From Orenia metallireducens (lineage in GTDB: Bacteria > Bacillota > Halanaerobiia > Halobacteroidales > Halobacteroidaceae): 64,000 bases of DNA. The first letter of the stretch is position 1, and each line of letters starts with the position of its first letter. Below the pieces are notes generated by a model that was not told the origin of the DNA, made no database searches, and saw only the letters and a program-made list of their open reading frames with translations. This document shows positions 16,507 to 19,298 of the stretch, piece by piece. The DNA lies in contig NZ_PVNB01000002.1 of assembly GCF_003001995.1 (NCBI RefSeq), positions 62,001-126,000 on the forward strand. The letters are read 5' to 3'. The translations under genes and the position numbers were made by a program.

Positions 16507-17475
16507 ATGGCTTATAAATGTGAAGAGCAGTTGAAGCTTAAAGCCAACGGATTTCTGAAAAAGCTAAAAGAAGAGGGGATAGATGGTGAGATTAAGCAGA
16601 TTGGTGATTATTTGATTAGGTTAGAAATTATAGCTGAAGGGGAAAGCTGTGGTTATGTAAACCTTTATTATAGTCCTAAAAAGGACGAATATACTCTAAA
16701 AACTAATCAGTTAGAGCAAAAATCAATTACAAAGAGGATATTAATAGTATGGGATTGCGCTAATCTCAGTTCTAAACCAACAGGTGAAGAAGAGTATAAA
16801 ATCTATGTTGATGGCTCTTATTTAGATGGGAATATAGGCTATGGCTTGGTAGTCTTAAAGGGTGATAAGGTTGTTGATGAATTATCTGGTTATGTTAGTG
16901 ATCCTGATGCTCAAGATTCCAGACAAGTAGGTGGAGAGTTAGTAGCTACTCAAGAGGCAGTTAGGTGGTGTCAACAGAGAGGGATTAAGAGAGTGGCTAT
17001 CTACTATGATTTAGAGAATATTAAGAAATGGGCTACTGGGGAGTATAAGACCAATAAGCCATTAACTCAAAATTTTAAAGATTTTATGGATAGTGTCAAT
17101 ATAGAAATCAATTGGCATAAGGTTAAAGCTCATACAGGAGTTAAATGGAATGAGCGAGCTGATGAATTGGCTAAAGCAGGGGCAGCTAGTCAGGAAAGTA
17201 CAAATAATAATAGCTTAGTAGATGAGTTGGATAAAAAAGCTAAAGAATTCAGTGATTACTTACAAAGAAGGGGATATTCTGTTGATTATAAAGGTATTTA
17301 TAATTTACAGGCAGCCAAACTTGGTTTAGATGATGGCTTTCAGAATATAGGACATTTGAATATTTATAATACTAAAAAACTCCATTTGGTACCGAAATAC
17401 CATGAGCTAAGGGATAAATTTAGACAAGATGAGTTAGAAAAGTTGTGGCAGGAATTCTTAACTATAAAGAGCTAG
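16507..17475 (+). CDS. Ribonuclease HI with flanking N- and C-terminal modules
   Basis: 322 residues. The central RNase HI fold (about 97-228) keeps all catalytic acids: Asp102 (YVDGSY), Glu144 (GGELVA), Asp168 (YYDLEN) and Asp219 (NERADELAK), with His209 in the KAHTGVKWNERAD segment. It degrades the RNA of RNA-DNA hybrids. About 75 residues before and 90 after the fold look alike: each starts with a charged helix (LKANGFLKKLKEEG; AKEFSDYLQRRG) and ends in an aromatic strand (GYVNLYY; GHLNIYN). They may be duplicated nucleic-acid-binding modules, comparable in position to caulimovirus-type RNase H N-domains. ATG with AGGAGG. Monocistronic. Confidence 0.88.
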   Translation: MAYKCEEQLKLKANGFLKKLKEEGIDGEIKQIGDYLIRLEIIAEGESCGYVNLYYSPKKDEYTLKTNQLEQKSITKRILIVWDCANLSSKPTGEEEYKIYVDGSYLDGNIGYGLVVLKGDKVVDELSGYVSDPDAQDSRQVGGELVATQEAVRWCQQRGIKRVAIYYDLENIKKWATGEYKTNKPLTQNFKDFMDSVNIEINWHKVKAHTGVKWNERADELAKAGAASQESTNNNSLVDELDKKAKEFSDYLQRRGYSVDYKGIYNLQAAKLGLDDGFQNIGHLNIYNTKKLHLVPKYHELRDKFRQDELEKLWQEFLTIKS

Positions 17476-17610: not shown

Positions 17611-17689
17611 ATTTATATAAAGTCTAACTTTAAGTGCAGACATCGATAGAGCTTGAATATTCATAGCTTTTATTTATAGTAAAAACCTA

Positions 17690-17717
17690 TTGATGATTAT
17701 TTTATTTATGATAAAAT
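17690..17717 (+). promoter_or_regulatory. Candidate promoter for the FliM-like micro-ORF
   Basis: TTGATG and TAAAAT separated by 16 bases, about 70 bases before the start codon at 17788. A reasonable but unproven housekeeping match in AT-rich DNA. Confidence 0.3.
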
Positions 17718-17787
17718 AAGAATAAATTAGATAATAATAGATTTTATGGTGATGCTTTAGGCTAAATGCTAATAAGGAGGTATAGCT

Positions 17788-17856
17788 ATGGGAGATGAGG
17801 TAATGTCTCAAGAAGAGATCGATGCTTTAATTGAGCAGATGAAGAATCAAAGTTAA
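17788..17856 (+). CDS. Micro-ORF resembling the FliM N-terminal CheY-binding peptide (22 aa)
   Basis: ATG at 17788, TAA at 17854, with AAGGAGG seven bases upstream and its own hairpin terminator after it. The product contains MSQEEIDALIEQM, very close to the conserved start of flagellar switch protein FliM (pattern LSQxEIDxLL), which is the docking peptide for phosphorylated CheY. No other FliM part is present, no frame continues beyond the stop, and the next gene is larA. The ribosome site and terminator argue for a real mini-gene rather than a broken fliM. It could titrate CheY or act on the flagellar switch; this is inference. Confidence 0.6.
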   Translation: MGDEVMSQEEIDALIEQMKNQS

Positions 17857-17875: not shown

Positions 17876-17912
17876 TAAACTGTACCTTGGAACGGGTATA
17901 GTTTATTTCTAA
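17876..17912 (+). terminator. Terminator of the FliM-like micro-ORF
   Basis: AAACTGTACC paired with GGTATAGTTT around a TTGGAACG loop, then TATTTCT. It lies about 20 bases after the stop codon. Confidence 0.6.
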
Positions 17913-18041: not shown

Positions 18042-19298
18042 ATGAAATTAAAGTATGGAGAAGAAAAATTAGCATTAAGTCTAGATAAGTTAGGAGAAGA
18101 AGTAGAGACATTATTACCCAATGAAAAAGAGGGGGTAGCAGATCCTTTAAAAGCTGTTAAAGCTAGCTTAGCTAACCCTATTAAATCTTTATCCTTAGAT
18201 AAATTAGTAGAGCAGAGGAATCCTAAAAAGGTAGTAATAGTAGTCAATGATGTCAGCAGATTGACACCTTATGATTATATGTTGCCACCATTATTGGAGC
18301 AGCTAGAGCAGGGTGGGGTTAAGAAAGAAGCAATTACCTTTATTATCGCTACAGGTATTCATGAGCCCAATACTGAAGAGCAGAATAGGAGAATCTTTGG
18401 TGATGAGATAGTTGATAATTATTGTTTAATATCTCATGACCCTGATAATAATTTAGTTGATTTGGGAGAGTTGAGCTCTGGAAATACTTTATTGTTAAAT
18501 AAAGAGGTTGTAGAGGCAGATTTTTTGATTACTACTGGAGTGATAACTGCTCACTATTTTGCAGGATTTTCAGGAGGGCGTAAATCTATTTTACCAGGAG
18601 TAGCAGGTAGGGAGAGCATTCAAAGAAACCATGCCCATATGGTCAATTTACTTGGTAATCTGCCTAAGATAGAGGATAATCCTGTCAGTTTAGAGATGAT
18701 TGAAGCAGCTAATAAGGTGGGAGTAGACTTTATTTTAAATGTAGTTACAAATAGTAAGAAAGAGATAGTAGAGGTAGTAGCAGGTGATTTAGAAGCAGCT
18801 TGGTATCAGGGTGTTAAGACCTCTAGTCAGATGTATCATGTTCCAATTAAGAAGAAGGTAGATGTGGCAATAGTCAGTGCAGGAGGCTATCCAAAGGATA
18901 TTAATATTTATCAGGCCCAAAAGGCTTTAGACAATGCTGATTATGCTGTTAAGGATGGAGGAACAATCGTGCTTTTGGCAGAATGTCGAGCAGGTTTGGG
19001 AGAGGATGTCTTTGAAGAGTGGCTAAATACTGCCACAAGACCTGAAGATAATATAGAAAGAATTAAAGAACGCTTTGTAATTGGTGGCCATAAAGCTTTT
19101 GCCATTAGTAAGGTGGTTTTAAACAAGGAGTTTATCTTAATTTCTGAGTTTAATCAAGAGATTACAGAGCTAATGTTTGCTAAGAAGATGAATAATCTAG
19201 ATGAAGTGTTATCTTATCTAGCTGATAAATATAATAAGAAGTATAGTTCTATTATTATGCCTCAGGGAGGTTTAACAGTACCAGTTATGGAAAAGTAA
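18042..19298 (+). CDS. larA: Nickel-dependent lactate racemase family protein
   Basis: 418 residues. LarA interconverts D- and L-lactate (some homologues act on other 2-hydroxyacids) using a nickel-pincer cofactor attached to a lysine. Expected residues are present: His107 in ATGIHEP, His171 in TAHYFAGFSGGRK, Lys181 in that same motif as cofactor attachment site, and histidines 197/199 in RNHAHM. ATG start, preceded by GGAGGAG. The cofactor-making genes larB, larC and larE are not in the window, so they must be elsewhere or the substrate and cofactor route differ. Length is normal. Confidence 0.88.
   Translation: MKLKYGEEKLALSLDKLGEEVETLLPNEKEGVADPLKAVKASLANPIKSLSLDKLVEQRNPKKVVIVVNDVSRLTPYDYMLPPLLEQLEQGGVKKEAITFIIATGIHEPNTEEQNRRIFGDEIVDNYCLISHDPDNNLVDLGELSSGNTLLLNKEVVEADFLITTGVITAHYFAGFSGGRKSILPGVAGRESIQRNHAHMVNLLGNLPKIEDNPVSLEMIEAANKVGVDFILNVVTNSKKEIVEVVAGDLEAAWYQGVKTSSQMYHVPIKKKVDVAIVSAGGYPKDINIYQAQKALDNADYAVKDGGTIVLLAECRAGLGEDVFEEWLNTATRPEDNIERIKERFVIGGHKAFAISKVVLNKEFILISEFNQEITELMFAKKMNNLDEVLSYLADKYNKKYSSIIMPQGGLTVPVMEK

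What the first reader, a model, noticed from the sequence alone, without database searches (positions are those of the whole stretch)
17788..17856. A free-standing FliM N-terminal peptide encoded as a micro-gene
The 22-codon frame encodes MSQEEIDALIEQM, which is very close to the conserved CheY-docking tip of FliM. It has its own strong ribosome site, a possible promoter and its own terminator, and no other fliM sequence follows. A free docking peptide could compete for CheY~P or affect switch assembly, a kind of chemotaxis control not described as far as I know. The match to FliM is seen; the function is inference.
Basis: partly seen in the sequence, partly recalled or inferred. Interest (0 to 1): 0.7.

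Follow-up and report, generated by a model that had tools for sequence, protein, structure and literature searches.

The report
Free-standing CheY-docking micropeptide gene
A 22-amino-acid gene in salt-loving Halobacteroidaceae bacteria encodes, on its own, the short tip by which flagellar motor proteins grab the chemotaxis messenger CheY; evolution has kept it as a protein in related genera, so it probably tunes swimming by binding CheY, although nobody has yet shown that it is made or binds.

Summary
Window 17788-17856 (+) encodes MGDEVMSQEEIDALIEQMKNQS, with AAGGAGG 7 nt upstream, a conserved extended -10 promoter-like site and a 12-bp hairpin after the stop. It is not a decayed fliM: intact fliM and fliY lie on another contig. 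The same micro-ORF occurs in 6 of 8 genomes of its family, and both start and stop are conserved. It sits between an RNase H gene and larA in the window's genus and in Halonatronum. In Natroniella it lies between fliL and fliM, and in a fourth genus behind gal genes. Codon changes show purifying selection (dN 0.06-0.08, dS above 1 or saturated; no second-position changes). A single further case, probably independent, turned up among about 85,000 species: fliL-[MSETLSQDEIDSLLDSLKKN]-fliM in a Peptostreptococcaceae MAG. The only PDB match to the peptide is 4IGA chain B, the Thermotoga FliM peptide bound to CheY, and both main CheYs of this genome are closest to Thermotoga CheY. Best reading: a translated, soluble CheY-docking micropeptide that competes with FliM/FliY for CheY~P or stabilises it. 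Translation by selection is well supported, docking is likely, and the effect on swimming is inference. No description of such a gene was found in the papers held.

The parts
17690..17717 (+). promoter-like site: TTGATG, 16 nt, TAAAAT with TGA just before (extended -10)
   Evidence: scan; number of sites not above shuffles; the stretch TATTTATGATAAAATA is invariant in three species where flanks differ; function inferred
17718..17773 (+). probable 5' untranslated leader
   Evidence: 100 nt upstream of the ORF are 93% identical to the sister species but only 52% to Halonatronum
17774..17780 (+). ribosome-binding site AAGGAGG, 7 nt before ATG
   Evidence: purine-rich ribosome sites also precede every relative's ATG
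17788..17856 (+). micro-gene, 22 aa MGDEVMSQEEIDALIEQMKNQS; docking core SQEEIDALI
   Evidence: conserved in relatives; purifying selection; PDB match 4IGA_B
17876..17905 (+). 12-bp hairpin followed by UUUCU, terminator-like
   Evidence: hairpins at the same place in two relatives despite 31-39% downstream identity of the window's genus to Halonatronum

Best explanation
The feature is a genuine protein-coding micro-gene of the Halobacteroidaceae. It makes a 21-23 residue peptide consisting only of the CheY-docking motif found at the N-termini of FliM and FliY (LSQxEIDALL), plus a short polar tail. As a free peptide it most likely binds the alpha4-beta5-alpha5 face of CheY, preferably CheY~P. 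By doing so it competes with the tethered tips of FliM and FliY in the motor and lowers or buffers the CheY~P available to the switch; binding may also hold CheY in its active form or shield it from the CheC/CheX/FliY phosphatases. Shown by sequence: the gene, its conservation, selection on the amino-acid sequence, and motif identity. Inferred: translation in the cell, CheY binding, and the direction of the effect.
For: ORF and signals. Same micro-ORF in 6 of 8 family genomes with short open frames of 22-43 codons, E 1e-13 to 4e-9, at three unrelated loci, one inside the flagellar operon between fliL and fliM. Selection: 6, 8 and 6 synonymous against 3, 4 and 3 nonsynonymous changes on about 10 against 56 sites; no changes at second codon positions in the first 21 codons; Natroniella pair 5 synonymous, 0 nonsynonymous; randomisation p 0.006 to 5e-5. 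ORF 81-87% identical where flanks fall to 31-56% against Halonatronum. Intact fliM, fliY, CheC/CheX-type proteins and at least two close CheYs in each family genome. Only PDB match to the peptide is 4IGA_B, the FliM peptide co-crystallised with Thermotoga CheY; both main CheYs of this genome match 1TMY/4IGA_A best. LSQXEIDALL is the known CheY~P-binding sequence (PMC6700473; PMC9126983), and mutating ID in that motif abolishes binding of the CheY-like CleA to FliM (PMC5677366). A probably independent fliL-micro-fliM case exists in a Peptostreptococcaceae MAG.
Against: No expression, proteomic or binding data. The gene is absent from one congener (G002, empty syntenic gap) and from G003, so it is dispensable for motility in the family. 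Outside Natroniella it is not next to motility genes. A free peptide must be abundant to compete with tethered tips. The genus-level selection test rests on few substitutions.
Confidence: 0.6

Rival explanations
1. The peptide acts on the switch complex (C ring) or its assembly rather than as a soluble CheY sink, for example by occupying a site on FliM, FliN or FliY normally used by the FliM N-terminal segment, or as a trans-acting extra docking tip.
For: In Natroniella and the Peptostreptococcaceae MAG the ORF lies between fliL and fliM, so it would be made together with the C-ring proteins. The FliM N-terminal region also contacts the FliN dimer (residues 34-45) in the Salmonella C ring (PMC11528121).
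Against: The C-ring contact involves residues 34-45, outside the docking motif that is conserved here. The peptide has no second domain with which to bind the ring. Elsewhere the gene is unlinked to flagellar genes.
Confidence: 0.12
2. Leader peptide or attenuator: the short ORF plus hairpin controls transcription into larA downstream.
For: A 22-codon ORF followed by a terminator-like hairpin, then larA 185 nt after the stop codon, is the general layout of an attenuator.
Against: The same amino-acid sequence is conserved at three unrelated loci, one (G005) without a significant hairpin (z -0.1) and followed by a gene on the other strand, and one in the flagellar operon. Synonymous codons drift freely, whereas attenuators conserve control codons. 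No Rfam family matched. The peptide is a known docking motif.
Confidence: 0.04
3. Decayed stump or accidental partial copy of fliM or fliY with no function.
For: The sequence clearly descends from, or mimics, a fliM/fliY 5' end, and partial duplications do arise: the Peptostreptococcaceae copy resembles its own fliM.
Against: Intact fliM and fliY elsewhere. Start, stop and length are conserved between genera, with almost only synonymous change in the motif, its own promoter-like site and ribosome site, and no trace of the remaining fliM sequence.
Confidence: 0.06
4. Chance short ORF, or a small RNA whose reading frame is incidental.
For: Promoter-ORF-hairpin gives a transcript of roughly 190 nt, and the 5' leader is 93% conserved between sister species.
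Against: Expected motif count by chance is 4e-4 per 64 kb. The substitution pattern is codon-structured, leader and hairpin sequence are not shared with Halonatronum whereas the peptide is, and no Rfam match was found.
Confidence: 0.02

Closest known systems
FliM N-terminal CheY-docking segment (FliM-N, LSQXEIDALL; PDB 1F4V and 4IGA with CheY)
   Same: Same 14-18 residue motif at the start of the protein; aligned with the Thermotoga FliM peptide of 4IGA over 15 residues.
   Different: Here it is a complete gene product of 21-23 residues with no linker, FliM middle domain or FliN-like domain; in FliM it is a tether on the motor.
FliY N-terminal docking segment
   Same: Natroniella micropeptide MSDEVLSQEEIDELI matches its own FliY start MSDEVLSQDEISALL better than its FliM.
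   Different: No CheC-like phosphatase or FliN domains; keeps EID where the FliYs found in the family have EIN or EIS.
CheZ C-terminal CheY-binding peptide
   Same: A portable CheY-binding peptide that uses the same CheY face as FliM (PMC3774744).
   Different: It is a tail of a phosphatase; no CheZ-type protein was associated with the micro-gene here.

Membership tests
FliM/FliY-type CheY-docking motif (works like) | LSQxEIDxLL-type sequence near an N-terminus | tested here: met
   VMSQEEIDALI (window), VLSQEEIDELI (Natroniella); S, Q, E, I, D and L invariant in all six copies; NCBIfam TIGR01397 positions 1-17 E 0.06, far below that model's cut-off
FliM/FliY-type CheY-docking motif (works like) | binds CheY or CheY~P on alpha4-beta5-alpha5 | not testable with these tools
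   Only the match to 4IGA_B and CheYs close to 4IGA_A
FliM protein (PF02154) | FliM middle domain and C-terminal FliN-like domain | tested here: not met
   22-aa ORF; no Pfam FliM hit; in the genome FliM matches only contig C3
FliY | CheC-type phosphatase motifs and FliN domain | tested here: not met
   peptide too short; CheC-domain matches lie in other, larger frames
Translated bacterial microprotein | conserved start, stop and frame with purifying selection | tested here: met
Translated bacterial microprotein | ribosome occupancy or mass-spectrometric detection | not testable with these tools
   no such data held
Transcription-attenuation leader peptide | conserved link to one downstream gene and conserved control codons | tested here: not met
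   three different genomic contexts and free synonymous drift

The most novel reading that the evidence does not exclude
A dedicated, self-standing CheY-docking microprotein is a layer of chemotaxis control not described before: a motor-tip mimic that titrates or stabilises CheY~P, kept in one family of halophilic anaerobes and apparently arisen again by short duplication next to fliM in a distant Clostridia lineage.
Probability: 0.55. Interest if true: 0.75.

Novelty: new variant of a known kind. Interest (0 to 1): 0.64.

Why it matters
FliM-tip peptides have been used in vitro for decades as the minimal CheY ligand. Here is a natural gene that makes just that ligand. If it is expressed and binds, chemotaxis has a genetically encoded competitor for the motor at the CheY~P step, easy to delete, overexpress or transplant, which allows a direct test of how motor bias depends on free CheY~P. 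It also shows a functional gene class below the usual gene-calling length limit.

Tried and rejected
Pfam gave no FliM hit for the peptide (too short). The collection scan for motif + 8 codons + in-frame stop gave 116 stretches. Nearly all were tails of longer proteins (Ignavibacteria and Bacteroidota CheZ-like proteins, alphaproteobacterial receiver proteins, streptomycete proteins) or Trp codons matching TRR. Halomonas olivaria (L158) was rejected as a micro-gene because the rest of FliM follows in another frame. G513 (open frame 55) is a contig end. Tandem-motif pattern in 398 genomes of the phylum: no match; the gap used (85-115 nt) fits the MAG, not Natroniella. Viral contigs: 20 pattern matches, none a start-to-stop micro-gene with a docking peptide. 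The 115-122 nt fliL-fliM gaps of G000-G002 hold no remnant frame. Literature searches for a free-standing FliM peptide found nothing. A CheY-peptide complex model was not attempted because the structure tool folds single unchanged chains only.

Full report
The feature. Window 17788-17856 on the + strand is a 22-codon ORF, MGDEVMSQEEIDALIEQMKNQS, flanked by a gene with an RNase H domain (16507-17475) and larA, lactate racemase (18042-19298). AAGGAGG lies 7 nt before the ATG. A TTGATG-N16-TGATAAAAT site lies about 70 nt upstream, and a 12-bp hairpin lies at 17876-17905. Promoter-site counts in the region do not exceed shuffles, so the promoter claim rests on conservation: TATTTATGATAAAATA is invariant in three species although the 100 nt upstream are only 52-56% identical to Halonatronum. 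The terminator is a real hairpin with a weak U-tract in the window and a good one in the sister species.

Not a fliM stump. The genome holds one FliM over the Pfam cut-off (336 aa) followed by fliY (401 aa, starting ...MNDALSQEEINALL) on another contig. The micro-ORF shares only the N-terminal motif with them.

Conservation. Profile searches of the family (8 genomes), class (59) and phylum (398 drawn evenly) show short open frames with this motif only in the family. They are absent from the congener G002, whose RNase H-larA gap is empty, and from G003. Contexts are RNase H-larA in G000, G001 and G004; between fliL and fliM in Natroniella; and after galactose-metabolism-like genes in G005 (gene names there from sequence by eye). 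The reading frame, ATG and stop position are kept: EID is followed by 10 codons in five copies and 9 in the sixth.

Selection. Nei-Gojobori counts give dN 0.056-0.075, with dS 1.2 or saturated, among G000, G001 and G004; the Natroniella pair has 5 synonymous and 0 nonsynonymous differences. None of the changes counted in the first 21 codons falls on a second codon position, and randomised placement of the same changes gives at least as few amino-acid changes with p 0.006 to 5e-5. This is a translated-protein signature, although from a small number of sites.

A separate appearance. A scan of 85,000 species for SQ[DE]EIDxL + 8 codons + in-frame stop found, besides the three named family members, one true micro-gene: MSETLSQDEIDSLLDSLKKN (TTG start) between fliL and fliM in Peptostreptococcaceae MAG McD6.36. 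247 genomes of its order hold no other. It resembles its own FliM start best, so a recent local duplication is likely. That this arose in a distant lineage in the same operon position as Natroniella suggests how the family's gene may have begun (inference). The scan fixes tail length and serine codon, so others could be missed.

What it binds. The only PDB sequence matching the peptide at E up to 10 is chain B of 4IGA, the Thermotoga FliM N-peptide crystallised with CheY. Every family genome has at least two CheYs of this type, one of them beside cheA in several genomes. The two main CheYs of the window genome have 1TMY/4IGA_A as best structures. The literature names LSQXEIDALL in FliM/FliY as the CheY~P-binding segment and shows that changing the ID pair in Caulobacter FliM abolishes binding of the CheY-like protein CleA. 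CheZ and FliM share one CheY face. CheY binding by the micropeptide is therefore the strongest functional inference; whether it is a sink, a stabiliser or a C-ring ligand is open. From general knowledge, not tested here: FliM peptides bind CheY~P in the micromolar range and favour its active form, so a well-translated free peptide could compete.

Rivals. The attenuator reading fails because the peptide, not a link to larA, is conserved across three contexts. The RNA-only and chance readings fail on codon-structured change. The decayed-copy reading fails on conservation between genera.

Verdict. A real, conserved, presumably unannotated micro-gene whose product is a bare CheY-docking tip. Known motif, new form. 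Function is likely CheY-directed; direction and size of the effect are unknown.

Noticed in passing
window 17688-17787: The 100 nt upstream of the ORF are 93% identical between G000 and its sister species, more than the ORF itself (87%) and far more than the downstream side (68%); the leader may carry regulation.
   Followed up: partly
L229, L224, L226 (fliL-fliM gap): The fliL-fliM gap is 115-122 nt in the window's genus against 11-16 nt in the neighbouring family, without any remnant micro-ORF; it could be the site of a lost copy.
   Followed up: partly
L038, L039, L229, L224-L228 (fliY starts): FliY of this family carries EIN or EIS instead of EID in the docking motif, while FliM and the micropeptide keep EID.
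   Followed up: no
L141 (around 4400), L172 (around 6975): CheZ-like proteins of Ignavibacteriales and Salinibacteraceae end in two tandem CheY-docking motifs (SQDEIDIMIKSTTSQDEIDKLFG).
   Followed up: no
L087, L100, L123: Alphaproteobacterial proteins carry a C-terminal NMSQDEIDSLLKP-type docking motif; the one read in full (L087) is receiver-like. Possibly another CheY-docking partner.
   Followed up: no
L158 (Halomonas olivaria TYRC17): fliM is broken by a frameshift just after the docking motif; either a sequencing error or a pseudogene.
   Followed up: partly
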